Assembly (NCBI GenBank): GCA_945861665.1
Contig: CAMAVS010000002.1
Location: 207,527 to 271,526 of the forward strand
DNA length: 64,000 nt
Direction: 5' to 3'
Origin: Chitinophaga pinensis
GTDB lineage: Bacteria > Bacteroidota > Bacteroidia > UBA4408
Shown piece by piece: positions 26,907-64,000 of the stretch; the first letter of the stretch is position 1; every line of letters starts with the position of its first letter. Made by a program: the position numbers and the translations under genes. The notes below the pieces were generated by a model that had not been told where the DNA came from, made no database searches, and saw only the letters and a list, made by a program, of their open reading frames with translations.

Positions 26907-27440
26907 ATGAATAGAAAAGATATAGGAAAAGAAATTGAAGTGCTTATTCATGCTATTAAAGTACATTACGATACTATTGGAGAGGAAATAAAAATTCCAG
27001 GGATAGAGCTAGAGCTAATAACTTCCAAAATTCGAAAATTATACGAAAAATCAATTGTGTATAATTATTTATATTCCATAGAAGAAGAGCAATTGCGTAA
27101 TCATAAAAAATCGTCTGGAAATGCAGATGTCCCAAATTTAGTATTAAGCAAAAGTGTAGGTTTTGACAAAGTGCAAGCTGTAGAAACGGAGACCGCTTTT
27201 GTTGAATTTCAAAAAAATCCTTTCAAAAACATAAAATCCCTTATCGGCATAAACGATCGCTTTTTATTTATCAAGGAACTGTTTGGAGGAAACACCTTGG
27301 AGTATAATGAAGCAATTGATAGGTTAAGCGCCACTAATGTTTCGGAAACACACAGTTTTTTAGAAGACTTACATCGAAAATATAAGTGGAACAAAGAAAG
27401 CGAAACCGTTAGCAGTTTTGTTTATTTTGTATCTCAGTAA
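26907..27440 (+). CDS. Conserved hypothetical protein of Bacteroidota
   Basis: A 177-residue soluble protein with no signal peptide or membrane segment. The N-terminal half is helical and charged; the C-terminal half has GINDRFLFIKELFGGN and the later YNEAIDRLSA, a pattern I recognise from many Bacteroidota proteins of unknown function found near cell-division or DNA-related genes. No catalytic motif is visible. It is transcribed divergently from tdk across a 123-base gap and followed by a terminator. Confidence 0.75.
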   Translation: MNRKDIGKEIEVLIHAIKVHYDTIGEEIKIPGIELELITSKIRKLYEKSIVYNYLYSIEEEQLRNHKKSSGNADVPNLVLSKSVGFDKVQAVETETAFVEFQKNPFKNIKSLIGINDRFLFIKELFGGNTLEYNEAIDRLSATNVSETHSFLEDLHRKYKWNKESETVSSFVYFVSQ

Positions 27441-27545
27441 AATATCTATTCCATTTCTTTTTTCATAAGCAATTTATCATGTGGAATGAGTTATGTAACC
27501 CCTTAAAGCAATGTGAAGAACTAGTTTTAGCATTACAACAACAAC

Positions 27546-27582
27546 AAACCCGCCCCACCAGGAATTCTTCGCGCGGGTTTTT
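27546..27582. terminator. Intrinsic terminator
   Basis: AAACCCGC (27546-27553) pairs with GCGGGTTT (27573-27580), followed by TT, about 105 bases after the hypothetical gene stop. The rest of the 27441-27728 gap is AT-rich and must hold the promoter of the large T9SS gene; no confident box was found. Confidence 0.75.
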
Positions 27583-27728
27583 AGTTAGAGTATTGCTATT
27601 ATTTATAAATTGCAGATATATTAATTGTTAATGGCTATAAAAGGTATTAATATAATCTTTTAATTTTTTTTTATAAAAAAAATTTGCAATTTTATAAAAA
27701 ATTATAACAACCCTAAATCAAATTGATT

Positions 27729-30700
27729 ATGAAAATTAATACTCGTTTTTTAAAACCGTTAACTATAATAGTAGGTTTACTGGCGGTGCAGTTTACCTTC
27801 GCACAGTGTCCTGTAATAACTTGCCCGGGTAATCAAACAGTAAATAACACCCCTGGCACTTGTGGTGCAGTGGTTAATTATGCAACTCCCGTTGGCGCTA
27901 ATCCTTGTGGTGGCGGCCCAACAACATTTACATATACAGGTGTTGCGCAGAACTATACTGTTCCTGCAGGGGTGACAACCATCACTATTGACGCATTTGG
28001 CGCCCAAGGGGGTACTTATGGTAACTTTACTGGTGGTTTAGGTGCAAGAATAAAAGGAAATGTTAGTGTTACTCCGGGACAAGTATTGCTAGTTTATGTT
28101 GGCGCGCAGGGTATCCCAAGTCAAAATGCTGGTGGAGGTGGTGGCGGAAGTGGTGTTTCAAATGGAGGAACAGCTTTAGTTGTAGCAGGTGCAGGAGGTG
28201 GTGCTTGTTCTGTAAATGGTGAGAATGGTTACCCAGGACTTATAACAACTATAGGAGGAAACTCTTCAGGTGCAGGTGGAGCAGGTGGAAATGGCGGACA
28301 AAAAGGATATAAATCTGGAGATTGTGGATGGGCCGGAGGAGGTGGCGGTTTTTTGGGTGACGGTTATGGAGGTCCTCAAGGTAATGATGGTGGTGCTTTA
28401 CCTGGTACATTAGGCGGTCCAGCAGGAGGAAAATCAAGAACGAATGGAGGAGCAGGGGGAGTTGGGGGTTGTTGTGGCTTTTCAAATTTAGGTTCAGGTG
28501 GCTGGGGATGCGGTGGTGGAGGTCGTGCGGAGTATGGCGGAGGCGGGGGCGGAGGTTATAGTGGCGGTGGCGGTGGCCAGTACGTTGACGTAGCTGGCAA
28601 AAGAGGTGGAGGCGGAGGAGGGTCGTATAATTCAGGGGTAAGCCAAACGAATACTTCCGGAGTGCAATCAGGAAATGGACAAGTTGTTATTACACCAATA
28701 ATAAATGGACAAACAATATATAACTACACAGGGGCAATGCAAACATTCACAGTTCCTGCAGGTGTTACTTCAATTAATATTGTTGCAAAAGGGGCACAAG
28801 GTGGAGGTTCCGAAGATTGTGGAGGAATTATTACAAGTGATGGAGGGCTTGGCGGAAGTGCTTCTGGCGACTTGACAGTAGCTCCGGGTCAGGTATTGAA
28901 TATATTTGTAGGTAGATATCCATCAACAGTGTTGGGTGGAAATTCACCTGGAGGATACAATGGTGGCGGTGGCGCGGGTCAATATGGTGGCCCTGGTGGT
29001 GGCGCATCTGATGTAAGACTTGGTGGCGTAGCTTTAGCTGATAGAAAGATTGTAGCTGGTGGTGGTGGTGGTGGCAACACTGGTTGTCCTGACCATGGTT
29101 TCGGTGGTGTTGGTGGTGGATTAAATGGCGCTAACGGGTCAGGTTTAGGACAAGGCTTTACACCTGGTGGAGGTGCTAGCCAAGTTGCTGGAGGAACAGC
29201 AGGTTCAGCTCCTGGTGCGGCAGGCGTTTTAGGTATTGGGGCTGGCACAGGAAATAATTATCATGAAGGAGCTGGTGGTGGAGGTTATTACGGTGGCGGT
29301 TCAGCATATGCTGCTGGAGGTGGCGGTGGATCATCATTTATCGGTGGTGTGCTGAATGGTGTAACTACTTCCGGTGTAAATACAGGTAATGGACAAATAA
29401 TACTAACGTATGCAGGAGGCGCTGGTGGTGCTGTAACTACAATTCAAACTGCAGGTTTAGCAAGTGGAGCAACCTTCCCCGTTGGAACAAGGGTAAATAC
29501 TTTTCAAGTTACTGACGGTTTAGGAAACACAGCATCTTGTTCATTCAATGTGATTGTAGTAGATAATCAAGTTCCTACAATAACTTGTTTGGGTAATATA
29601 ACAGCAAATACAAGCTTAGGTGTTTGTGGTGCAGTAGTAAACTTCAATGCACCAGTAGGAACAGATAATTGTTTGTCAACTACAGCACGTACAACAGGCC
29701 TGGCAAGTGGTTCATTGTTCCCTTTGGGTGCAACAACACAGACATATGTTGTTACAGATGCATCGGGTTTAACGGCAACTTGTTCTTTTACTGTAACAGT
29801 AACAGATAATCAAGCTCCAGCAATAACTTGTCCGGGTAATATAACAGTAAACAATGCATTAGGAATGTGCAATGCAGTAGTAACGTTTAATGCTCCAGTA
29901 GGCACAGATAATTGCTCAGCAACCACAGTTCGTACAGCAGGTTTGCCAAGCGGTTCAACTTTCCCTGTAGGAGTAACAACTCAAAGCTATACAGCAACAG
30001 ATGCAGCAGGAAATGCAACATCTTGTTCCTTTACCGTAACGGTAGTAGACAATGAATTGCCAACAGTAGTTTGTCCAGCAAACGTAGCAACATGTAATCC
30101 ATTGGTAACAGGTATAGCACCAACTAGTACAAACGATAATTGTGCAGGCACAACAGTAGCATATGCTTTAACAGGTGCAACCACGGGCAACGGAAACACC
30201 GATGCAAGTGGCACTACATTTAATGTAGGAACAACCTCTGTAAAGTATACCGTAACTGATGCAGCAGGTAATACAAATAACTGTTCCTTCAATGTGGTAA
30301 TTCACCCAACTCCTGTAGTAGTATTGAGCGCATTTGCGAACGATACCATTTGTGAAGGAGATGCAGCTTTAGCATTACCAAATGCGACTCCTGCAGGAGG
30401 AACCTTTAGTGGAGCAGGTGTAGTAGGTGGAAACTTTAACCCAGCAACAGCAGGAACAGGTAACCACTATGTAGTTTATTCAAGCACCAATGCCGATGGT
30501 TGCAATGATATAGATTCAACAATGATAACAGTATTAGTATGTGCCGGCATCAAAGGAGAAGCAAATGGTTCAAACATAGTAGTTTATCCAAATCCAACAT
30601 CGGGAATGATTACTATAACATTAGGATCGATGAGTAAATTAGTAGAATTAACGGTAACAGAATTAAACGGCCAACTGGTAAAATCAGCAAAATATGCCAA

Positions 30701-30806
30701 CTCCAATAATGTGAGAATGGATATCAGTAATTTATCAGATGGAATGTATTTTGTTACAGTAAAAGCTGACAATGAATTGAAACAAGTGAAGATCGTGAAG
30801 AACTAA
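27729..30806 (+). CDS. T9SS-exported HYR and glycine-rich repeat surface protein
   Basis: 1025 residues from the ATG at 27729. Order: a signal peptide (to about residue 27); the start of a HYR domain (CPVITCPGNQTVNNT); two glycine-rich modules, each opening with a strand such as FTYTGVAQNYTVPAGVTTI or YNYTGAMQTFTVPAGVTSI and rich in GGGGG; the end of the HYR domain (PVGTRVNTFQVTDGLGNTAS); then three more HYR repeats; an Ig-like segment; and a type A sorting domain (VVYPNPTSGMITI to the final QVKIVKN). HYR repeats are beta-sandwich adhesion modules. It is exported by T9SS to the surface or medium. Probable adhesin or matrix component. It stands alone, closed by a terminator. Confidence 0.88.
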   Translation: MKINTRFLKPLTIIVGLLAVQFTFAQCPVITCPGNQTVNNTPGTCGAVVNYATPVGANPCGGGPTTFTYTGVAQNYTVPAGVTTITIDAFGAQGGTYGNFTGGLGARIKGNVSVTPGQVLLVYVGAQGIPSQNAGGGGGGSGVSNGGTALVVAGAGGGACSVNGENGYPGLITTIGGNSSGAGGAGGNGGQKGYKSGDCGWAGGGGGFLGDGYGGPQGNDGGALPGTLGGPAGGKSRTNGGAGGVGGCCGFSNLGSGGWGCGGGGRAEYGGGGGGGYSGGGGGQYVDVAGKRGGGGGGSYNSGVSQTNTSGVQSGNGQVVITPIINGQTIYNYTGAMQTFTVPAGVTSINIVAKGAQGGGSEDCGGIITSDGGLGGSASGDLTVAPGQVLNIFVGRYPSTVLGGNSPGGYNGGGGAGQYGGPGGGASDVRLGGVALADRKIVAGGGGGGNTGCPDHGFGGVGGGLNGANGSGLGQGFTPGGGASQVAGGTAGSAPGAAGVLGIGAGTGNNYHEGAGGGGYYGGGSAYAAGGGGGSSFIGGVLNGVTTSGVNTGNGQIILTYAGGAGGAVTTIQTAGLASGATFPVGTRVNTFQVTDGLGNTASCSFNVIVVDNQVPTITCLGNITANTSLGVCGAVVNFNAPVGTDNCLSTTARTTGLASGSLFPLGATTQTYVVTDASGLTATCSFTVTVTDNQAPAITCPGNITVNNALGMCNAVVTFNAPVGTDNCSATTVRTAGLPSGSTFPVGVTTQSYTATDAAGNATSCSFTVTVVDNELPTVVCPANVATCNPLVTGIAPTSTNDNCAGTTVAYALTGATTGNGNTDASGTTFNVGTTSVKYTVTDAAGNTNNCSFNVVIHPTPVVVLSAFANDTICEGDAALALPNATPAGGTFSGAGVVGGNFNPATAGTGNHYVVYSSTNADGCNDIDSTMITVLVCAGIKGEANGSNIVVYPNPTSGMITITLGSMSKLVELTVTELNGQLVKSAKYANSNNVRMDISNLSDGMYFVTVKADNELKQVKIVKN

Positions 30807-30826
30807 TTATTAATTTTTGTCATTGC

Positions 30827-30855
30827 AAAAGGCTCACGATTTTTGTGGGCCTTTT
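30827..30855 (+). terminator. Intrinsic terminator
   Basis: AAAAGGCTCAC (30827-30837) pairs, with one G-U, with GTGGGCCTTTT (30845-30855), 20 bases after the stop of the large T9SS gene. Confidence 0.8.
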
Positions 30856-30927
30856 CCTTTTAAATAATAGAGTAATAAATAAACAATTTTAAGTTTTGTC
30901 TGTTTAGTGTTTTAGTAAACATTAACT

Positions 30928-30956
30928 TTTGTCTAATTATTATTCCCTTATATTTG
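30928..30956 (+). promoter_or_regulatory. Promoter of the desaturase gene
   Basis: A TTTG at 30928-30931 and TATATTTG at 30949-30956 match the -33 (TTTG) and -7 (TAnnTTTG) elements of Bacteroidota promoters with 17 bases between them. The start codon follows 16 bases later. Confidence 0.65.
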
Positions 30957-30972
30957 CTAAATAAAACTACAA

Positions 30973-31695
30973 ATGGCTATACTTATTTTTTTTCTTCTGC
31001 ATTGGTTTCTTTCATTGTTTTGTCAAACCTTTTTTCTGCATCGATACTCTTCTCATAAAATGTTCTCAATGAATAAATTTTGGGATCGCTTTTTTTATTT
31101 TTTTACATTCATTACCCAAGGCGCTTCTTTTCTAAACCCAAGAGCTTACGCTATTTTACACCGTATGCATCACGCCTATAGCGATACTGAAAAAGACCCA
31201 CATTCGCCAGTTTTTGTAAAAGATGTTTGGGGCTTAATGGTTAAAACAAAAAATGTTTATCAGCAATATGCTTTGTACAAAGTGGAGCCTGAGCCTCAGT
31301 TTGTAGACCGCTACCCTACTTGGACATTGATTGATAAAATAAGCGATATGTGGATAGTGAGAATAAGTTTTGCTTTAGGGTACATTGCTTTTTACTATTA
31401 TTTTGCCATTTCTCCTTGGGTGTATTTATTATTACCTATCCATTTTTTGATGGGCCCTGTTCACGGGGCTATCGTTAATTGGTGTGGACATAAATATGGC
31501 TATTCTAATTTTGATAACGGAGACCACAGCAAAAACATGTTGCCAATGGATTTTTTAATGATGGGAGAATTGTTTCAGAACAATCACCATAAGAGTCCTA
31601 ATGCGCCCAACTTTGCTAAAAAATGGTATGAAGTAGACCCTACTTACCCCATCATGCTTTTTTTAAACTGGACAAAAATTATTAAACTCAGATAG
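30973..31695 (+). CDS. Membrane fatty acid desaturase
   Basis: A 240-residue di-iron membrane desaturase related to acyl-CoA delta-9 desaturases. The three histidine boxes are present: FLHRYSSH (22-28), LHRMHHAYSDTEKDPHSP (from about 60) and FQNNHHKSP (near 205), with an additional WCGHKYG. Hydrophobic segments lie at about 2-20, 40-55 and 130-165. It introduces a double bond into membrane acyl chains, probably for fluidity at low temperature. It has its own promoter and terminator. Confidence 0.9.
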   Translation: MAILIFFLLHWFLSLFCQTFFLHRYSSHKMFSMNKFWDRFFYFFTFITQGASFLNPRAYAILHRMHHAYSDTEKDPHSPVFVKDVWGLMVKTKNVYQQYALYKVEPEPQFVDRYPTWTLIDKISDMWIVRISFALGYIAFYYYFAISPWVYLLLPIHFLMGPVHGAIVNWCGHKYGYSNFDNGDHSKNMLPMDFLMMGELFQNNHHKSPNAPNFAKKWYEVDPTYPIMLFLNWTKIIKLR

Positions 31696-56061: not shown

Positions 56062-56700
56062 TTACAATACAATCGTCTTCGCTTTTTTGTCCTGCTTCAG
56101 CCAACCTCGCAAAAGGTCATCGGCATCAGGACAGTAGTCTGTTTTCTTAATTAAGGCTTTAAACTATTCGGGCGAATTTATTTGAGTGCCTCCATCTATA
56201 TAGCCATAACCGGCATAACGACCATTCTCTAATAATATAAGTGATTGTTCACCGGGAGCTTTTCCTTTGTCGATAATTACAAAATTGGGGAAATCAAAAA
56301 GATAACGTTAAAAATTTTACTTAGCGCGGTTGTTGTAAACTACTACAGCCTCCTCTTCCGTACTAATAGCATTACGCTTTTTAATTTGGTGGTTGAAGCA
56401 TAATGATTCTTCATTTGTTAAGCCGCAATAGGGTAAACACAAACTGTAATCGTCTAACCAAGTTTCTAATTTGTTATGTGTAGCAAAGTGTATTGAATGA
56501 CATTAGTGCATTTTCTGCTTGTTCGTATTCTACAATCTTAAAATTGATAATCTTTTTTTCGTCTTTGAACCAAGTAATAAGAGTGCTTTACGGCTATTGT
56601 TTTTTAAAAGAAAAATTAAATATAGGGAATTGTTGATTTTGATATTATTGACAACCGCTGGAATAATTGCTTCATTGTCTAATAAAACAGAAGTTTAATT
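56062..56700 (-). pseudogene. Decayed exonuclease/UvrC-like gene, 3' part
   Basis: Minus-strand frames rebuild the C-terminal part of a protein like the DNA polymerase III epsilon-type exonucleases fused to a GIY-YIG/UvrC-like domain: ALITWFKDEKKIINFKIVEY, KLETWLDDYSLCLPYCGLTN, SLCFNHQIKKRNAIS, YLFDFPNFVIIDKGKAPGEQ and ENGRYAGYGYIDGGTQINSP. The last about 140 codons are in one frame interrupted by TAA at 56317-56319, TAA at 56308-56310 and TAG at 56164-56166; Glu would fit all three. Upstream, one-base indels are needed near 56487 and 56590. The N-terminal nuclease domain is absent. The 711-base gap between genes is explained by this remnant. Confidence 0.75.
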
Positions 56701-56702
56701 AG

Positions 56703-57500
56703 TTATAATTTAAGCTGAACTCCTAAAGTAATGTTGTAATAGTAGTTATCAATAGGCAATACTCTATAATCGTCATAATTATGGTCGTAATGTAAAATAA
56801 AATTTAATTTTTTAGACATTTCAAAATACAGATTAGAATCAAATGCCCAACGTGGTTTAAAAAAATGACCATTGAGTGGAAACTGAACAAAATTTACACC
56901 AGCAAAATCAACTTTATCTCCTAATTTAAAGGCAAATTTGGCAGAGGTATTTAACCGTATTAATTCTCGTTTTATGTTTATAGGTATGTCGTTAGAGTAG
57001 GCGTAAGTAATTAAATTTGTATTCCAGTTTTCTAACTCATAAAATGCCCCAATACTTAAATAAAAATCCGATTTCTTTTTTTCTAAACAATTGATTCTGC
57101 AATTAGCGCCTAACAAGGAACGGTTTTCCATACCTAATATACCATTCCATTGAAATTGGGTAAATGCATCTAAAGCCACAACACGCGTATCTTTATCACG
57201 AAAACGAATTTGAATAAATCCATTGTTTTCAATGGATTTATTGCCATTAAAGGCTAAATCAGTTTGATTTAATAAAATAAAAAAGTAATTATTTTTTAAG
57301 AAATAATCTAACTCTGTTGTATTTGAAAATTCTAAAAAATTACTTTTTTGTTTATCACTTGCAAACGAAGCAATCACAGATGCTTTAAATTTTTTAGGAA
57401 TGGTATCTGTTCCATTTTCTCTATCAACATTTAAAATTTGGGCTTGAACCGAATTGCATAATAATAAAATAATAGCTAATAATACAGCTTTAGTAAACAT
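56703..57500 (-). CDS. DUF481-like outer-membrane protein
   Basis: A 265-residue protein with a signal peptide (KAVLLAIILLLCNSVQAQ) and a beta-strand-rich body that looks like the DUF481 family: VVALDAFTQFQWNGILGMENR, FYLSIGAFYELENWNTN, ALDxF and a C-terminal YYYNITLGVQLKL. An Asn-rich loop near 65-85 is present. Two Cys close together (ANCRINCLEKK) are unusual for a barrel. It is the last gene of a minus-strand cluster that begins near 63.8 kb. Confidence 0.75.
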   Translation of the reverse strand: MFTKAVLLAIILLLCNSVQAQILNVDRENGTDTIPKKFKASVIASFASDKQKSNFLEFSNTTELDYFLKNNYFFILLNQTDLAFNGNKSIENNGFIQIRFRDKDTRVVALDAFTQFQWNGILGMENRSLLGANCRINCLEKKKSDFYLSIGAFYELENWNTNLITYAYSNDIPINIKRELIRLNTSAKFAFKLGDKVDFAGVNFVQFPLNGHFFKPRWAFDSNLYFEMSKKLNFILHYDHNYDDYRVLPIDNYYYNITLGVQLKL

Positions 57501-57515
57501 TCGTCTTCGTGTTTT

Positions 57516-57698
57516 TTAAGCGCCAATTTTAAATAACATCTTTATAACCCAATACCAAAATGCCCCTAATATAACTAAGCCAATGGCAACAGCAATAATT
57601 CCAACAACTTTAATTAGTTTAACACTGAAAAAATCTAAATCTTGATTTGTTTTACGATCATGCGTTTCATCAATTTTTGATTTTTTAATTTTTCTCAT
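57516..57698 (-). CDS. Small one-helix membrane protein
   Basis: A 60-residue protein with a very basic N-terminus (MRKIKKSKIDETHDRK) and one or two hydrophobic stretches in about 28-56 (VVGIIAVAIGLVILGAFWYWVIKML). The positive-inside rule predicts a cytoplasmic N-terminus. No family recognised. One base separates it from the next upstream gene in the cluster, which supports expression with its neighbours. Confidence 0.6.
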   Translation of the reverse strand: MRKIKKSKIDETHDRKTNQDLDFFSVKLIKVVGIIAVAIGLVILGAFWYWVIKMLFKIGA

Positions 57699-57699
57699 A

Positions 57700-58098
57700 C
57701 TATTTTAAATAACAAGCTATTTTTATTTTTAATATTGAACTTAAAAATGCTCCAATAGCAGTTTCACCAAGTATTCTATCTTTTAGCGAAACGTAATTGT
57801 CGCTTGGTTTAATAAACCAACGTAATACTTGAAAGATTGAAAATACTGATGAGAAGCAAAGTATTATTGTAATTATTAGTGGAATAATTGAAAATTGATG
57901 TTTTAAATTAGTAATAAACATTAATGCATAAAATGGTATTATTATGCAATCAATAATTTGAAATATGGCATTTAAAAATGCATACGGAAATTTAAAATAA
58001 AATGTATTTATTTTAGTTTCAATGTTAAATTCATGAACTTTTTGGGTAGGTAGCGGAATAAGTTCATCATACAATTCTCTAATTAGTCCCATAATCAA
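57700..58098 (-). CDS. Membrane protein of unknown function
   Basis: A 132-residue protein with an amphipathic N-terminal region (RELYDELIPLPTQKVHEFN) and three hydrophobic segments (about 40-58, 66-95 and 100-125). The Met three codons in (58092) is an equally good start. Its start overlaps the end of the upstream 106-residue gene by up to 20 bases, so translation is probably coupled. No family recognised. Confidence 0.6.
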   Translation of the reverse strand: MIMGLIRELYDELIPLPTQKVHEFNIETKINTFYFKFPYAFLNAIFQIIDCIIIPFYALMFITNLKHQFSIIPLIITIILCFSSVFSIFQVLRWFIKPSDNYVSLKDRILGETAIGAFLSSILKIKIACYLK

Positions 58099-58399
58099 TT
58101 GATTTTGTAAATAATGTTTTAATTAAAATAATTACTGCTATTGCATTTGTGATAAGTGTAATAATGGCTAAATAATAATAACCTTTATCTTTTGCAGGGC
58201 CTGATGTAATAAATAAGGAGTAAGCAATTGTCCCAAAAAATCCAATAAAAATTAAAGCTAATAAAAACCACCAAAATACAGTTTTGTTTCTATTCTTAGC
58301 TCTCAATGCAAAAATACTGAACGCAAGCCCTCCAAATAAAGAAGCTATTAAATAAATAATTAGAAACGGTAGAGAATTATTTTTTTCTTTTTTAGCCAT
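58079..58399 (-). CDS. Membrane protein of unknown function
   Basis: A 106-residue protein with a basic start (MAKKEKNNS) and three to four hydrophobic segments (about 10-30, 37-57 and 74-98). FGGLAFSIFALRAKNRNKTV between helices 1 and 2 is the only polar loop of note. It lies one base after the 56-residue basic protein gene and overlaps the 132-residue protein gene. Function unknown; it probably acts with its neighbours. Confidence 0.6.
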   Translation of the reverse strand: MAKKEKNNSLPFLIIYLIASLFGGLAFSIFALRAKNRNKTVFWWFLLALIFIGFFGTIAYSLFITSGPAKDKGYYYLAIITLITNAIAVIILIKTLFTKSIDYGTN

Positions 58400-58400
58400 A

Positions 58401-58571
58401 TTACCAATTTTTAAATAACATTCTAATTAAAGACCTCCCTATTTTTCTTTCTACTCCACCTTTAGTAGTTGGAACCCCTGTTTTAGAAGCAATACTTGAT
58501 TTTAAGCCACTAATGCCTAATAGTCTTTTCCATGAAAATGAAAACCCATATTTTCCTTTAAAGCCGAACAT
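58401..58571 (-). CDS. Small basic protein of 56 residues
   Basis: Reads from the ATG at 58571 as a compact basic protein: MFGFKGKYGFSFSWKRLLGI, SGLKSSIASKTGVPTTKGG and ERKIGRSLIRMLFKNW. It has 13 Lys/Arg and only one acidic residue, with no membrane helix, and could bind nucleic acid or membranes. Proteins of this look (SxKRxxGIS, then SxxTGxPTTKxGxxRKxGR) occur in phages and bacterial accessory regions, as far as I recall, without known function. It stops one base before the next gene. Confidence 0.6.
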   Translation of the reverse strand: MFGFKGKYGFSFSWKRLLGISGLKSSIASKTGVPTTKGGVERKIGRSLIRMLFKNW

Positions 58572-58701
58572 AATTATTTATTGTATTGATATAGATTTGG
58601 ATTATTTTTTGATTTAAGAATTAACACGATTCATTGATAATTAAATTAGTTATTTTTCTATGTGTTTCTTTTTCTAAGCTTTTTTTACAGCCAATTACAA
58701 A

Positions 58702-59772
58702 CTATTCAAAATAAATGTCGCCACCTTTTTTTATTTCATTTGCAATTCTATTATTTGCATCTTCAATTCTATTGTATATATTCAAATTTGAAATATTCAT
58801 ATTGATTTCAACATCATACTCATTAATAATTTGAGTTAGATTACTAATTATTTCATTGCTAAAATTAGTTTCATTTTGTTTTAAATATATTTTTGTGGTA
58901 CTAAGTTCAGACTTTAATTTATTAAGCAATTTGGCATAATCTTTCAAAATATTTAAAGAGGATTCGTACTCTGAATCATCTGATTTTATGAAATTGGTCA
59001 TATTGTTTAGTTCACTTTCAATATCAGAACATTCATTTCTTTTGATTTTATTTAAAATTAAAAGACGAACAACTTTATTAGATTCTATCAGCAAATTTTT
59101 AAATGCTTCCAAATTTTCATTTAATCCAGAATCATCAATAATATTAGTAGGTATTTTTGCTGTTGATCTAATACTTTTGAACTTTTTAATTCGTTCTGTT
59201 TCATAGCGAGAATATTCATCAAGAAATACGTTGTTTATTGATATAAATTTAAGTACATATTTTAAACTATCCATTTTGGAAGCACTATACGTTTTTTTAT
59301 ACTCCTCGTAGTTAGACTTATAGTCAAATGCTACTCCTGATACTGAAACTATTAGCCCTGCACCATTCCAAGCCCCTTTTGCAAATGATTTTAATATTTT
59401 ATATGAACCATTAGCAACCGAGAGTGCATTTTTATTATCTATTTGATCGGCAGTAATAGAATCGTTCACAAATTCTGCCGTATTATCTAAAAAGTTACAC
59501 ATTTTATCACCCGTTGTTGAAAATGCTTCAAATGCACCCTTCACATATTTACTTAAAACCGGATCCGATTCTATGTTTTTGGGAACGTAATCGATGATGT
59601 TGTCACTTGAATTTAATGATTCGTTGCATTTAGAAATAGTCTCCTTATTTTGATTTTCATTTGTGTTGCTCTGTTTTTTATTTTCATTACATCCTGTTTG
59701 AGTAAACACAATAATTATAAGCATAGCAATAAAAGCTATCATTGGTCTGTTTTTAAATATATTTTTTTTCAT
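58702..59772 (-). CDS. Lipoprotein with helical/coiled-coil body
   Basis: A 356-residue lipoprotein: a basic start, a hydrophobic segment and lipobox FTQTGC (Cys28), then an Asn/Lys-rich linker. A small Gly-containing region near 125-150 (SFAKGAWNGAGLIVSVSG) is followed by about 200 residues of charged helix with coiled-coil character (SSLNILKDYAKLLNKLKSEL). No family recognised. It lies 58 bases after the KAP NTPase gene and so belongs to the accessory cluster; an envelope-facing partner of that ATPase is possible. Confidence 0.7.
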   Translation of the reverse strand: MKKNIFKNRPMIAFIAMLIIIVFTQTGCNENKKQSNTNENQNKETISKCNESLNSSDNIIDYVPKNIESDPVLSKYVKGAFEAFSTTGDKMCNFLDNTAEFVNDSITADQIDNKNALSVANGSYKILKSFAKGAWNGAGLIVSVSGVAFDYKSNYEEYKKTYSASKMDSLKYVLKFISINNVFLDEYSRYETERIKKFKSIRSTAKIPTNIIDDSGLNENLEAFKNLLIESNKVVRLLILNKIKRNECSDIESELNNMTNFIKSDDSEYESSLNILKDYAKLLNKLKSELSTTKIYLKQNETNFSNEIISNLTQIINEYDVEINMNISNLNIYNRIEDANNRIANEIKKGGDIYFE

Positions 59773-59830
59773 TGTTATAAGTTAAATTTCCTTGCTCTTT
59801 ATGCTTTTCGGTTTCGCCTAGTTTTTATAT

Positions 59831-61588
59831 TTATTTTTTTGTGTTTGATAATTCATTGAATCGATTTCTTAATTCTGTTTTAATGGTTTCATTGAAATCG
59901 TCTATGTTTTTAATTGCGGCTGCTTTACCTGCATATTCAAAAATAACAAAGTCTTTTTTTAATCGAATAAAGATTAATGTTTTTACTCTTGTGCTTGCAA
60001 ATTTACAGGCAATCGTTAAAAAATTTGGTGTATAATTAAACTGTATTAAATCTTTAAATTCTGTTTCAAAATAATCATGAATAGATTTTAATGTTGGAAT
60101 AAATGGAACAATGTTTTTATTTTCCTTCAACATAAATTCAAAACCTGCCCAACCTTCATACCTCACTTTATCTCCTTTTTTGGTTTGTTTAGGCGTATAA
60201 TCTAAACTAACACTTGTTACTGCGCTTGTTCCTATAATTTTTGTTAGTTCGTCATGAAAGTCCAAATTCTCTGGTACTAATTCGCTTAAATAATTTAAGA
60301 GTTGTGAAATTTGAAATGTTCTTGAAGATAAATACGGATCTTTTTGACACAGTCTGTATAGCACTGTTTCCCATTCTTCATCAAATTCTGTGGTATCTTT
60401 TAATATAATACTTTGAGATTCTGTTATATCAGGAAGGCGCATTTTCTTTGCTGTTTTTTCATTCCATTCCTTGTAATTTGTATCTTCAATGAGGGCTTGG
60501 TAAATTTTAGGATACGCAATTTGAATACACACTAAACCAAAATTGATAACTAATTCGTAGGCCTCTTTATTCGAATTATTTTTTCGTTTATCAATGATGT
60601 TTAAAAGAGAAAGGGTGTTAATTAATCGCTTTAATGACCTTGGATTTGTACCTACCGATAACATCGCAAAATCAGTTAATTTATCTTTTAAAGATTCGTT
60701 TGCCGCAAATTTTTCATCAATATATCCAATGTCTTCTAATGATTGCAATAAGAAATGATTCACATCATACATTGCTACTGGCATCGAAAATGGAAGTTGA
60801 ATAATTTTATCGAAGAACGAACGAAATTCTCTTTCGTTTTTTTCGGTTAACGGACCAAATTTTGGGATAAGGCCTTTTACAACAACTTCATAATCAATTG
60901 CTAATACGAAAATACAATTATCAACTTCAAAAATATTTTTAATTAATTCTAATATTTCAACGGCAACTGGTGGATCAATCCTATCCAAATCATCTATGAA
61001 GAAAATAAATCCTCTGTTGTTATTACCTTGTTTTTTGTCTAGTCTTAAGCATTCAGCAATTGCGTCTTGTAGTGAATTTTTGAAGTTTAATAGGTCTACA
61101 GACTCATCCTCTCCATCAAAAAAACCATCCACAACATCCCCTTCTAAGCCGATATTACTCACCGCCACTTTAGCGCCAGCTTTAGCTACTTTGCCAAAAA
61201 AACTAGTTACTTTGCTTAGTACAGCTTTAGATTGGGATTCATGCTTTCTTTTTATGATGCGAGATATTTCATTTGTTAAACCGCTAATAATAGCCATTAG
61301 CGTTTCTTCTCTCGTCTTCATGATTGAATATTGCCAGGTATTAACCCAAATGCCATAGTAAGGCAATTCCTTATCCAAGTTTTCATTCAATCCAGTTTCG
61401 CAAAGCTCATGTCTAATTTGATTGAGCATAGATGTTTTTCCGCTTCCCCATTCGCCTTGAACAGCAATGGTTGTTGGCATATTACATGTTTCAATAAATT
61501 TAATTAATGAATGCATGTAATCATCTACGCCTAATAAATCTGGTGCGCCTGCTTTTCTAGGTTTATCAATAATATTTGAGTGGTTCAT
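59831..61588 (-). CDS. KAP-family P-loop NTPase
   Basis: A 585-residue ATPase. Walker A is GEWGSGKTSM (45-54) and Walker B is FIFFIDDLDRIDPP (near 195-208), followed by FVLAIDYEVV, the hallmark KAP order. The usual KAP transmembrane insert between the motifs is replaced by a soluble stretch with an Ala-rich weak hydrophobic patch (about 110-135). The last about 130 residues (from about 450) form a separate alpha/beta domain that I cannot name. KAP NTPases occur in several antiphage and membrane-linked systems. Directly upstream lies one copy of the 29-base repeat. Confidence 0.88.
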   Translation of the reverse strand: MNHSNIIDKPRKAGAPDLLGVDDYMHSLIKFIETCNMPTTIAVQGEWGSGKTSMLNQIRHELCETGLNENLDKELPYYGIWVNTWQYSIMKTREETLMAIISGLTNEISRIIKRKHESQSKAVLSKVTSFFGKVAKAGAKVAVSNIGLEGDVVDGFFDGEDESVDLLNFKNSLQDAIAECLRLDKKQGNNNRGFIFFIDDLDRIDPPVAVEILELIKNIFEVDNCIFVLAIDYEVVVKGLIPKFGPLTEKNEREFRSFFDKIIQLPFSMPVAMYDVNHFLLQSLEDIGYIDEKFAANESLKDKLTDFAMLSVGTNPRSLKRLINTLSLLNIIDKRKNNSNKEAYELVINFGLVCIQIAYPKIYQALIEDTNYKEWNEKTAKKMRLPDITESQSIILKDTTEFDEEWETVLYRLCQKDPYLSSRTFQISQLLNYLSELVPENLDFHDELTKIIGTSAVTSVSLDYTPKQTKKGDKVRYEGWAGFEFMLKENKNIVPFIPTLKSIHDYFETEFKDLIQFNYTPNFLTIACKFASTRVKTLIFIRLKKDFVIFEYAGKAAAIKNIDDFNETIKTELRNRFNELSNTKK

Positions 61589-61592
61589 AGTT

Positions 61593-61621
61593 TTATATAA
61601 ATAATTGTTTTTTAAAGTGTT
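61593..61621. repeat. 29-base direct repeat, copy 1
   Basis: Identical over 29 bases to 62975-63003. This copy lies four bases upstream of the KAP NTPase start codon. It repeats the last nine codons, with stop, of the UDG-like gene. Together the copies bracket the EcsC/TerB-like gene. Confidence 0.95.
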
Positions 61622-61728
61622 AATTAAATTTGTTGGCTACTTTTTTCCGTTTAGTATTTTTGCATTTGCATCTTGTAAATCAAATTTTGCTGCCAATATC
61701 AATAAAATCTCCTGAATCATTATCTAAA

Positions 61729-62958
61729 TCAGCAAAGGGCTTCAATGAGATTATTATTTATATCATTAGATTCAATTGTTTTGCCATTATCAATTATTAT
61801 TTTTCTGCCACCATTTTGGTAGCTACCTTTTAATATTATTTCATTATTGTTGTCAAATATAAATAGTCGATTGTCTGCATAAAACTGCGCTTTATTTTTA
61901 GTGTTATTGAAAGTATATTCAATAATATCATTTATTTCAACGGCATCAACTTTTAGAAAGTACTTTACGGCTAAGTAATTAGCGAATAATTCGTTTATAA
62001 CAAATTTAACATCGAGATTTAATTTTTCGCATACAGTCATAATATATTCAAATTCTTTTACATGAACTTTGCCATCTCGTTTAGCTAAAGAAATCATGTC
62101 TATTAATAAGCTGTCTTTATCAGATTTACTTGATAGTTCAAGTAATTTAAAATCAACCTTACTTTGCGAACTTAATTCTAAATCAACTTTAAGTTTAGCT
62201 GATGTGTAATAGCTAAAATCAATGTTATCAATTATTTGTTTAATATATTCTTTTTCTTTTTCATTAGATTCATCATCAACTTTCATTAAGTTCATCAAAA
62301 CAATAACTTTGTTTTCTAGCACTTCTATTGTTTCTTCAGGATCTAATTGGTATTCATCTATTTGATCAGTCTCTTGCACATCTATATCTTTGCTTAATAT
62401 TAGCGCTGAATTTTCTCCGATTTTTGCAGTTGTATATTTTACCCATATTCCAATAGCCAAACCACCTAGTACAGGAACAAATTTTGCTACTGCAGATTTT
62501 ACTACTCCTGCAGAAAGCTTAATTCCTAATACTTTAGCCATTTGTTGAAATACTTTAACACTTGCTTTTTTAATCAGTATTTTTTCCCCTTGCCTTGCAA
62601 CTGCATTTATGCCAGCTGAACCAAAACCAGATTGCATGGCGAGTGCTAAAACCGTTTCTTTTGACATATGCTCTTCCTTTCCATTCGCAACGCCAATGTC
62701 ATAAATCATTGCAATCTGATTTTCAATGGTAAATTTTAATTCAGGAATAATTGCTAATAACCCAGCGGGGCCAGGAATCATTCCAGATATACCTGAAATT
62801 GCCCCATTAGTTTTGCTACAAGAACTAATGATGTCTTCAACATGTTCTTTACTAGGCTTTTCATTTTCTAAGTAATATTTTTTTCTATCCTCAATTGATC
62901 CCTCAAAAAGTGGGATAATTATTTGAATAAATTTCTCTTGGAATTTTTCTATTGCCAT
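61729..62958 (-). CDS. EcsC/TerB-like protein, C-terminus probably frameshifted
   Basis: A 409-residue protein. Residues about 40-175 resemble EcsC, a helical family with SGMIPGPAGLLAIIPELKF and VANGKEEHMSKETVLALAMQ. Residues about 210-325 look like a TerB-type helical domain (LMNLMKVDDESNEKEKEYI and LAKRDGKVHVKEFEYIMTVC). A short beta-rich tail follows. At the end the frame stops after IEALC, but skipping one T gives EALADLDNDSGDFIDIGSKI with a stop at 61680-61682, so the tail has probably been cut by a one-base insertion. Bracketed by the 29-base repeats. TerB-like domains recur in phage defence and stress systems. Confidence 0.75.
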   Translation of the reverse strand: MAIEKFQEKFIQIIIPLFEGSIEDRKKYYLENEKPSKEHVEDIISSCSKTNGAISGISGMIPGPAGLLAIIPELKFTIENQIAMIYDIGVANGKEEHMSKETVLALAMQSGFGSAGINAVARQGEKILIKKASVKVFQQMAKVLGIKLSAGVVKSAVAKFVPVLGGLAIGIWVKYTTAKIGENSALILSKDIDVQETDQIDEYQLDPEETIEVLENKVIVLMNLMKVDDESNEKEKEYIKQIIDNIDFSYYTSAKLKVDLELSSQSKVDFKLLELSSKSDKDSLLIDMISLAKRDGKVHVKEFEYIMTVCEKLNLDVKFVINELFANYLAVKYFLKVDAVEINDIIEYTFNNTKNKAQFYADNRLFIFDNNNEIILKGSYQNGGRKIIIDNGKTIESNDINNNLIEALC

Positions 62959-62974
62959 TTTATTAATTTGTTTA

Positions 62975-63003
62975 TTATATAAATAATTGTTTTTTAAAGT
63001 GTT
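62975..63003. repeat. 29-base direct repeat, copy 2
   Basis: Identical to 61593-61621. This copy forms the last codons (HFKKQLFI and stop) of the UDG-like gene and ends 16 bases upstream of the EcsC/TerB-like start codon. Confidence 0.95.
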
Positions 63004-63811
63004 GAATTTTTTTTCCTAATTCATTCATTTCATTATTGTTTTTAAGTAATCCTATTGAAATAAATAAATTAGCAATGGTTTGAATATTTTGAGTTACTGT
63101 TCTTGAAATATGAGGCATAAATAAATAGGTGATGTTGTTTATGGTTTCTAATATTTCCTTTGACTTTATATTTTGTATTGTTTTTAAGGCGTTTGCCGAT
63201 TCGATGCCTAACGTAATAATCATATCAGGTTGAATGATTTTAATTTCTTCATTCAATATAAATTTATGTAGCGCATAATACTCACTATTATTACCTGTAA
63301 AACTTTTGTCCTTATTGCTTAGTAGTGTTTTGTTTTGTTCTTGATATTCATAATAAAGTTTATATACATCAGTGATATAAACTAAATTGTTTTTTGTAAG
63401 TGGTTCTATAAAACGCCAATAATCATTTTTCTTAGTATTTCTATCATTTTTGTTATGAAGGCTAAATACAGTGCTTAAGCTAATTTCATCATGATGCTGC
63501 GCATTGCGTTTTGGATCCATCGCAACAATCATTATTTTTTTTTGGAATGAATTTGTGTTTCCTAATAATATAGGAAAATCAATTCCGCAATTACTTAAGT
63601 TAACTTTTTGTTGTGCTATGTTTGAAAATAGATTTAATTCTTTAAACAAAACATTATTTAAAATTAACCTATCTTCTTTTTCAAACTCGAAATTATTGTA
63701 AATACATTCATAATAATTTTCTAATGTATTATGAAAACTAGTATTAAATAAATTCTCCGAAAGTACTACCGTAATCTTTTTCTGAAGATCTTTATGGTTA
63801 AGTTTATTCAA
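62975..63811 (-). CDS. Uracil-DNA glycosylase superfamily-like protein
   Basis: A 278-residue protein. The C-terminal two thirds look like a UDG-type fold: a strand and loop KKIMIVAMDPKRNAQ (91-105) in place of the first catalytic motif, a strand leading to LVYITDVYKLYY (143-154), then PDMIITLGIESANAL (195-209), a strand typical of the family, and FMPHISR (231-237) in place of the second catalytic HPS-type motif. The usual catalytic Asp/Glu pattern is not clear, so enzymatic activity is uncertain. The N-terminal about 85 residues are helical. First intact gene of the accessory cluster. Confidence 0.6.
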   Translation of the reverse strand: MNKLNHKDLQKKITVVLSENLFNTSFHNTLENYYECIYNNFEFEKEDRLILNNVLFKELNLFSNIAQQKVNLSNCGIDFPILLGNTNSFQKKIMIVAMDPKRNAQHHDEISLSTVFSLHNKNDRNTKKNDYWRFIEPLTKNNLVYITDVYKLYYEYQEQNKTLLSNKDKSFTGNNSEYYALHKFILNEEIKIIQPDMIITLGIESANALKTIQNIKSKEILETINNITYLFMPHISRTVTQNIQTIANLFISIGLLKNNNEMNELGKKIQHFKKQLFI

Positions 63812-63823
63812 TTTTATTTTTAT

Positions 63824-64000
63824 TTAAACTTGTCCTTTAATGCTTTTTATATATCCGTTAATGCGCTCTATATCGTTCTTTTAAGATTCAATTTGGTTTA
63901 CAATGCTGTTTACTCTTCCGATTTTTGTTTTTACTAATATGCCAGTTTTTTTTAGTGGATTCTGGACTCCACAGAATTACATTACAGTTTTAATTAATTG
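63824..64000 (-). pseudogene. Remnant of an accessory gene at the window edge
   Basis: The minus-strand frame ends NDIERINGYIKSIKGQV with a stop at 63824. Upstream in frame are a TAA at 63881-63883 and GILVKTKIGRVNSIVNQIES, a heptad-like helix; Glu fits the stop. Further back, a run of eight A may hide a frameshift, since the other frame reads NVILWSPESTKK. The start lies outside the window. No family recognised. Confidence 0.4.

What the first reader, a model, noticed from the sequence alone, without database searches (positions are those of the whole stretch)
56703..63811. Candidate undescribed system: KAP NTPase, UDG-like protein, EcsC/TerB-like protein, lipoprotein and small membrane proteins
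Nine minus-strand genes, several overlapping or one base apart: UDG-like, EcsC/TerB-like, KAP ATPase, lipoprotein, 56-residue basic protein, three small membrane proteins, DUF481-like barrel. KAP NTPases and TerB-like domains occur in antiphage and stress systems, and a UDG-like protein could recognise modified DNA. The cluster is more AT-rich to the eye, has unrecognised small genes and is flanked by gene remnants at both ends (56.1 and 63.8 kb), as in an island. No described system that I know has this gene set. Operon unity is not proven.
Basis: inference. Interest (0 to 1): 0.7.

Follow-up and report, generated by a model that had tools for sequence, protein, structure and literature searches.

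The report
Mobile KAP-NTPase and DNA-glycosylase envelope cluster
A rare, horizontally moving set of bacterial genes (an ATP-using switch protein, a DNA-base-removing enzyme relative and several cell-envelope proteins) keeps recurring together across Bacteroidota in shuffled order; it looks like an undescribed system, perhaps a defence against invading DNA, but its function is untested.

Summary
Iterated profile searches over about 37 loci find the same families together in shuffled order: KAP NTPase, UDG-like glycosylase, DUF481-like barrel, small proteins E-D-C-B, plus K, J, L and regulator M. The grouping holds even where KAP is only 38% identical, and again when searching from the UDG side. 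The window cuts the system: three more genes lie just beyond its end, two directly behind copies of the DUF805 cis-regulatory RNA (Rfam RF03081). A degraded copy precedes the UDG gene (63924-63977); DUF805 or DUF805b RNAs precede system genes in seven other loci. KAP is rare (about 1-2% of sampled genomes) and horizontally transferred. The UDG-like protein keeps an invariant Asp/His pair matching the UDG active site. Best reading, inferred: an envelope-anchored, NTP-controlled conflict (anti-phage or anti-mobile-element) system with a glycosylase effector, confidence 0.45. No described system found here has this gene set.

The parts
56519..56698 (+). remnant: C-terminal tail of an EamA-type transporter
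   Evidence: homologous to the end of the intact 300-aa gene beside the same cluster in L005
56703..57500 (-). A: 265-aa signal-peptide, DUF481-like outer-membrane barrel
   Evidence: DUF481 E=0.0082; family in 14 loci, all KAP-anchored
57516..57698 (-). B: 60-aa single-TM protein
   Evidence: 10 KAP loci and 2 UDG-first loci; hydropathy
57700..58098 (-). C: 130-132-aa membrane protein (probable ATG start at 58092)
   Evidence: 7 KAP loci plus L115 and L120; at least 2 TM-like segments
58079..58399 (-). D: 106-aa protein with three TM-like segments
   Evidence: 8 KAP loci plus L115 and L120
58401..58571 (-). E: 56-aa basic protein (12 K/R, 1 D/E), GFSFSWKRLLGIS...TGxPTTxGG
   Evidence: 60-95% identity over long distances; dN well below dS
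58702..59772 (-). F: 356-aa lipoprotein, optional component
   Evidence: only 3 loci; absent from the otherwise near-identical L005
59831..61588 (-). G: soluble KAP P-loop NTPase, 585 aa, Walker A GEWGSGKT, Walker B FIDDLDR
   Evidence: PF07693 2.4e-37; Walker motifs conserved in 17 homologues
61729..62958 (-). H: EcsC-like plus TerB-like protein, 409 aa, optional component
   Evidence: TerB 1.4e-5, EcsC 3.2e-4; PDC-S30 7.9e-8; 3 loci
62975..63811 (-). I: UDG-superfamily-like protein, 278 aa, D99 and H234 invariant
   Evidence: AlphaFold2 model and Foldseek
61593..61621 (.). 29-nt direct repeat, copy 1 (between KAP and EcsC/TerB)
   Evidence: 100% identical to copy 2
62975..63003 (.). 29-nt direct repeat, copy 2 (3' end of the UDG-like gene)
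63924..63977 (-). degraded DUF805 cis-regulatory RNA upstream of the UDG-like gene
   Evidence: RF03081, 40.7 bits (gathering 51.1), E 5.5e-6 to 1.5e-4

Best explanation
A mobile, multi-gene conflict system of Bacteroidota, most likely anti-phage or anti-mobile-DNA. Shown by computation: a soluble KAP NTPase, a UDG-superfamily-like protein that keeps an Asp/His pair matching the glycosylase active site, an outer-membrane-barrel-like protein, a set of small basic and membrane proteins in constant order (E-D-C-B), a tandem-repeat protein (K) and a TM protein with or without a peptidoglycan-binding OmpA domain (J) are inherited together, move horizontally, and exchange optional parts; DUF805-clan cis-RNAs precede many of its genes. 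Inferred: the membrane proteins and J hold the complex at the envelope, where DNA enters; the KAP NTPase is the ATP-driven switch that responds to invasion; the glycosylase excises bases, perhaps modified ones, from invading DNA, leaving abasic sites; EcsC/TerB and the lipoprotein are accessory.
For: Co-conservation across about 37 loci and deep KAP divergence. Rarity: 3 of 396 and 9 of 395 sampled genomes. Horizontal transfer: the KAP of same-family genome G003 groups with G725 of another family (100/100), and its second KAP with G539 of another family; a 98.6% identical DNA block shared with L005. KAP matches PADLOC PDC-S20, PifA and QatA models; EcsC/TerB matches PDC-S30. Invariant D99 and H234 in nine UDG-like proteins; Foldseek hits are UDG, UdgX, SMUG1 and TDG. 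A distant UDG relative (L118) sits beside GmrSD, an AAA (IetA-like) and a DEDDh exonuclease. UDG-superfamily enzymes Brig1 and Brig3 are proven anti-phage glycosylases (PMC11078745, PMC13160076). UDG-like and some barrel proteins diverge fast while KAP and E are strongly constrained.
Against: No phenotype, transcript or biochemical datum. Ninety-six neighbouring genes are mostly housekeeping, with only a few candidate-defence (PDC) hits. No homologue of KAP or E in the phage and plasmid collections, and none of KAP in viral contigs. DUF805 RNAs also precede many unrelated surface and membrane genes, which fits an envelope role as well. The OmpA domain is present only in some J proteins. The UDG model is of moderate confidence (pLDDT 62.7) with TM-scores of only 0.3-0.5.
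Confidence: 0.45

Rival explanations
1. Envelope-maintenance or envelope-stress machine: a regulon of membrane and cell-wall proteins controlled through DUF805 RNAs, with the KAP NTPase driving membrane remodelling and the UDG-like protein acting on nucleotides or as a non-catalytic binder.
For: Most parts are membrane or envelope proteins: DUF481-like barrel, OmpA protein, lipoprotein, small TM proteins, DUF4230 neighbours. DUF805 RNAs precede many secreted and membrane genes in the same genomes.
Against: Rare, patchy, horizontally transferred and component-swapping, unlike housekeeping. An invariant glycosylase-type Asp/His pair is hard to explain.
Confidence: 0.25
2. Interbacterial antagonism or secretion module: the tandem-repeat (perhaps ubiquitin-like) protein K, the coiled-coil protein L and the membrane proteins form a small export device in the style of type VII secretion, and the variable genes are cargo and immunity.
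For: K is two homologous repeats (hhalign 97%) whose weak best fold hits include tandem ubiquitin-like proteins; L has a weak YwqH-like match (E 0.037); gene content shuffles.
Against: No EssC/FtsK ATPase and no toxin domain found; the fold hits have E above 0.1; UDG and KAP are not explained.
Confidence: 0.1
3. Not one system: independent mobile genes that accumulate at the same integration hot spots.
For: Order is shuffled, single members occur alone (E in L039, UDG in L117 and L118), and some loci lie near tRNA genes.
Against: The E-D-C-B order and tight spacing recur in 8 loci; KAP with barrel and UDG recurs across a deep KAP split (L059); the reverse search from UDG recovers E-D-C-B in L115 and L120.
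Confidence: 0.15

Closest known systems
Brig1 / Brig3 (anti-phage DNA glycosylases)
   Same: UDG-superfamily protein in a mobile, patchy gene cluster; a relative (L118) sits next to GmrSD, which also targets modified phage DNA
   Different: Brig enzymes protect alone or with one hydrolase (BapA); here the UDG-like gene is tied to KAP and envelope genes. Activity untested, and direct homology to Brig1/3 was not tested
Qat system (QatA) and PifA
   Same: KAP-type P-loop NTPase (QatA model 77 bits; PifA model 1.1e-27)
   Different: far below the QatA cut-off (600 bits); no QatB/C/D; the PifA match covers only the NTPase part (7-315 of 720); soluble KAP with a different gene set
Zorya
   Same: NTPase/nucleic-acid effector logic combined with a TM protein carrying an OmpA peptidoglycan-binding domain (the OmpA part of J matches ZorB models, 1.8e-13)
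   Different: no ZorA (MotA-like), ZorC, ZorD or ZorE; the match covers the OmpA region only; many J proteins lack OmpA
PADLOC candidates PDC-S20 (KAP) and PDC-S29/S30 (EcsC-like)
   Same: KAP matches PDC-S20 at 7.4e-29; EcsC/TerB matches PDC-S30 at 7.9e-8
   Different: by their names single-gene candidates; here they are parts of a 10-12-gene set
DUF805 / DUF805b RNA (Rfam RF03081, RF02914)
   Same: leaders of this system belong to these families above the gathering score
   Different: not itself a system; function unknown; also precedes many other genes

Membership tests
KAP P-loop NTPase (PF07693) | profile match above gathering score with intact Walker A and B | tested here: met
   129.2 bits against 20; GEWGSGKT and the DDLDR motif invariant in 17 homologues
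Uracil-DNA glycosylase superfamily (PF03167) | profile match above gathering score | tested here: inconclusive
   window copy 21.8 against 24.3 bits; siblings 29.3 (L011), 34.3 (L117), 24.9 (L118)
Uracil-DNA glycosylase superfamily (PF03167) | UDG fold and catalytic Asp/His positions | tested here: inconclusive
   Foldseek top hits all UDG/UdgX/SMUG1/TDG, E 2.9e-4, prob 1.0 but TM 0.3-0.5; D99 and H234 invariant; equivalence to E. coli D64/H187 is by motif inspection
Uracil-DNA glycosylase superfamily (PF03167) | base-excision activity | not testable with these tools
   needs biochemistry
Brig1/Brig3 defence glycosylases | sequence homology to Brig1/Brig3 and phage protection | not tested
   their sequences were not compared; only superfamily resemblance is known
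Qat | QatA above the equivalog cut-off | tested here: not met
   77.4 bits against 600
Qat | presence of QatB, QatC, QatD | tested here: not met
   no such PADLOC/NCBIfam match in the cluster
Zorya | ZorA (MotA-like) and ZorC/D or ZorE | tested here: not met
   no match in the cluster; only the OmpA region of J matches ZorB
TerB / EcsC | profile match above gathering score | tested here: inconclusive
   TerB 25.8 against 24.4 met; EcsC 20.9 against 30.4 not met
DUF481 outer-membrane proteins | profile match above gathering score | tested here: not met
   16.6 against 21.1 bits; only DUF481-like
DUF805 RNA (RF03081) | covariance-model score above gathering 51.1 | tested here: met
   78.7 and 70.3 bits beyond the window end, 65.3 before KAP in L034; the in-window copy (40.7) is below cut-off

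The most novel reading that the evidence does not exclude
A categorically new trans-envelope immune machine of Bacteroidota: an outer-membrane barrel, wall-anchored and small inner-membrane proteins and a ubiquitin-like tandem-repeat protein couple DNA entry to a KAP NTPase and a base-excising glycosylase, with expression gated by the orphan DUF805/DUF805b RNA, whose signal would then be infection- or envelope-related.
Probability: 0.2. Interest if true: 0.9.

Novelty: new variant of a known kind. Interest (0 to 1): 0.64.

Why it matters
If the defence reading holds, it is an undescribed multi-gene system that pairs a KAP NTPase with a DNA glycosylase and a cell-envelope module, outside classical defence islands where gene-neighbourhood screens would miss it. 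Most components match no Pfam, NCBIfam or PADLOC family convincingly. It also gives a concrete, testable biological context to a class of cis-regulatory RNAs (DUF805/DUF805b) for which no functional study was found in the paper library held here.

Tried and rejected
Integron-like cassette array: the repeats at gene boundaries turned out to be DUF805 RNA leaders plus remnants of a duplicated UDG/EcsC junction; no recombination-site pattern was found. tRNA-targeted integration: a tRNA-Leu lies just beyond the cluster, but no att-like repeat of 12 or more bases was found. Phage, plasmid or viral origin: no hits for KAP or E in phages and plasmids, none for KAP in viral contigs. Defence-island context: scanned 96 neighbours, mostly housekeeping. 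PHROGs for the novel families: no informative match apart from OmpA. PDB profile search with KAP and K gave no meaningful hit. The ubiquitin-like fold of K is only weakly supported (best E 0.18) and is not claimed.
Full report
Observation. The nine ORFs are exactly as described: one minus-strand run with 1-140 bp gaps, GC 26-31% in a window that is mostly 33-40%. Pfam confirms the KAP NTPase (2.4e-37), TerB (1.4e-5), weak EcsC (3.2e-4), weak UDG (2.1e-4, below cut-off) and a suggestive DUF481 (0.008); the 56-aa protein, the small membrane proteins and the lipoprotein match nothing convincing. The window ends inside the cluster. In the source genome (G000:C2; window number = L019 number + 54473) follow a decayed duplicate of the UDG-3'/EcsC-5' junction (from 64005), a 74-aa Zn-ribbon-like ORF (64382-64606), J, a TM protein with a C-terminal OmpA domain (64752-65876, OmpA 2.9e-22), K, a 126-aa protein (65947-66327), and a tRNA-Leu (67293-67373).

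Is it one system? Iterated profiles of each window family and of recurring neighbours were then run over 31 loci. The same families recur in shuffled order: DUF481-like barrel A in 14 loci, UDG-like I in 13, E in 12, B in 10, D in 8, C in 7, K in 15, regulator-like M in 11; EcsC/TerB H and lipoprotein F in only 3 each (window included). The most telling case is L059 (genome G574), whose KAP is only 38% identical to the window's yet which reads M-K-K-E-D-C-B-UDG-KAP-A on one strand. L034 (G003, same family as the window genome) reads M-K-K-(Zn-ribbon)-KAP-E-D-C-B-UDG-A. The block E-D-C-B in that order recurs in eight loci. Control DNA (185 kb: the rest of the window and unrelated loci) gave a single hit, an M regulator that lies in another UDG cluster. 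The reverse test, starting from the UDG family (375 genomes), recovered E-D-C-B with UDG in L115 and L120, a MORN-like partner shared by L114, L116 and the KAP locus L015, and a Zn-ribbon shared by L119 and the KAP locus L034. Single members do also occur alone (E in L039; UDG in L117 and L118).

Mobility and selection. KAP of this kind is rare: 3 of 396 phylum-wide and 9 of 395 class-wide genomes. The tree shows transfer between families: G003's KAP groups with G725 of another family (100/100), and its second KAP with G539 of a third family on branches of 0.03 and 0.05. A contig from Kiruna (L005) shares a 98.6% identical KAP-EcsC/TerB block and an 86% block from E to the barrel, lacks the lipoprotein gene, and carries intact the EamA-type gene whose tail is the remnant at 56519-56698 in the window. 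KAP, E, K and J are under strong purifying selection (for example KAP dN 0.001-0.26 against dS 0.09-2.3 or saturated; E dN 0.03-0.28 against dS 0.27-2.0), whereas the UDG-like protein and some barrels diverge fast (dN about 0.7-0.9), still below dS.

Parts. KAP is predicted soluble, with Walker A GEWGSGKT and the Walker B DDLDR motif invariant in 17 homologues. The UDG-like proteins share invariant D99 (motif AMDP/AMDS) and H234 (motif PHIS), plus T147-D148, K151, N166, E189 and G202. By motif these correspond to the catalytic Asp and motif-B His of UDGs; this equivalence is my inspection, not a structural superposition. The AlphaFold2 model has pLDDT 62.7 and pTM 0.70; its best PDB matches are all UDG, UdgX, SMUG1 or TDG (E 2.9e-4, probability 1.0), though TM-scores are 0.3-0.5. 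K consists of two homologous repeats (hhalign 97.1%); its confident model (pLDDT 86, from the L006 homologue) gives only weak matches, several of them tandem ubiquitin-like proteins (best E 0.18), so a ubiquitin-like fold is a lead, not a result. D, C, B and J have TM-like segments; A and F carry N-terminal signal segments, F with a lipobox-like TQTGC; E has 12 basic and 1 acidic residue.

Regulation. An element first seen as a repeat upstream of the genes is the Rfam DUF805 RNA (RF03081, cis-regulatory). In the source genome 11 copies were found, three of them within 2.5 kb at this cluster: before K (70.3 bits), before the 74-aa ORF (78.7) and, degraded (40.7, below the 51.1 cut-off), before the UDG-like gene. 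DUF805 or the related DUF805b RNA (RF02914) also sits directly before K in L007, L012, L057 and (33.2 bits, just below cut-off) L059, before KAP in L034, before J in L018, and before small ORFs leading into UDG operons in L117, L119 and (42.9 bits, below cut-off) L114. Several loci show none (for example L005, L009, L011, L054, L115). The RNA is not specific to this system: it precedes many secreted and membrane genes elsewhere. No paper in the held library discusses DUF805 RNA as far as titles and hits show.

Function. Shown: a co-inherited, mobile, multi-component gene set. Inferred: its role. For defence: KAP matches PADLOC PDC-S20, PifA and QatA models, EcsC/TerB matches PDC-S30, UDG-superfamily enzymes Brig1 and Brig3 are proven anti-phage glycosylases acting on modified phage DNA (PMC11078745, PMC13160076), a distant UDG relative sits beside GmrSD, an IetA-like AAA protein and a DEDDh exonuclease (L118), and distribution and turnover are those of conflict genes. 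Against or neutral: neighbours are mostly housekeeping, the RNA's other targets and the many envelope proteins fit an envelope function too, and there is no phenotype. My commitment is an envelope-anchored, KAP-controlled conflict system with a glycosylase effector (0.45), rivals being an envelope-stress machine (0.25), coincident mobile genes (0.15) and an export or antagonism module (0.10).

Comparison. It fails membership of Qat (QatA 77 against 600 bits; no QatB-D) and Zorya (only the OmpA region of J matches ZorB; no ZorA/C/D/E). It works, if the model is right, like a cross between Brig-type glycosylase defence and envelope-anchored Zorya, but is neither. Literature searches for KAP with UDG, OmpA, EcsC or TerB found no description of such a set; most subscription-journal papers are not in that library.

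Noticed in passing
G000 loci L064, L066-L069, L075, L087, L101; other genomes L073-L102: DUF805 RNAs precede a broad set of secreted or membrane genes (metalloprotease-like proteins, TM2-like proteins, a rhodopsin-like protein in L089, cupredoxin-like proteins) at a nearly constant distance to the start codon, suggesting a wide surface-protein regulon.
   Followed up: partly
L118:9170-15165: Distant UDG-like relative in a compact cluster with an AAA (IetA-like) protein, a DEDDh exonuclease and a GmrSD-type nuclease: a possible modified-base defence island.
   Followed up: partly
L039:9895-11995 (G122): The 56-aa E family occurs without this KAP, next to membrane proteins and a Cys-rich protein.
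   Followed up: no
L036 and L037 (G233): Two copies of a KAP plus two flanking genes at distant sites of one chromosome, one of them inside an array of 263-aa proteins.
   Followed up: no
L114:10905-12813, L116:805-2568, L015:4627-5706: A MORN-like, unannotated protein repeatedly sits directly or nearly directly before the UDG-like gene.
   Followed up: partly
window 27001-31000: Sharp composition change (GC up to 47%, GC skew +0.32) unlike the rest of the window.
   Followed up: no
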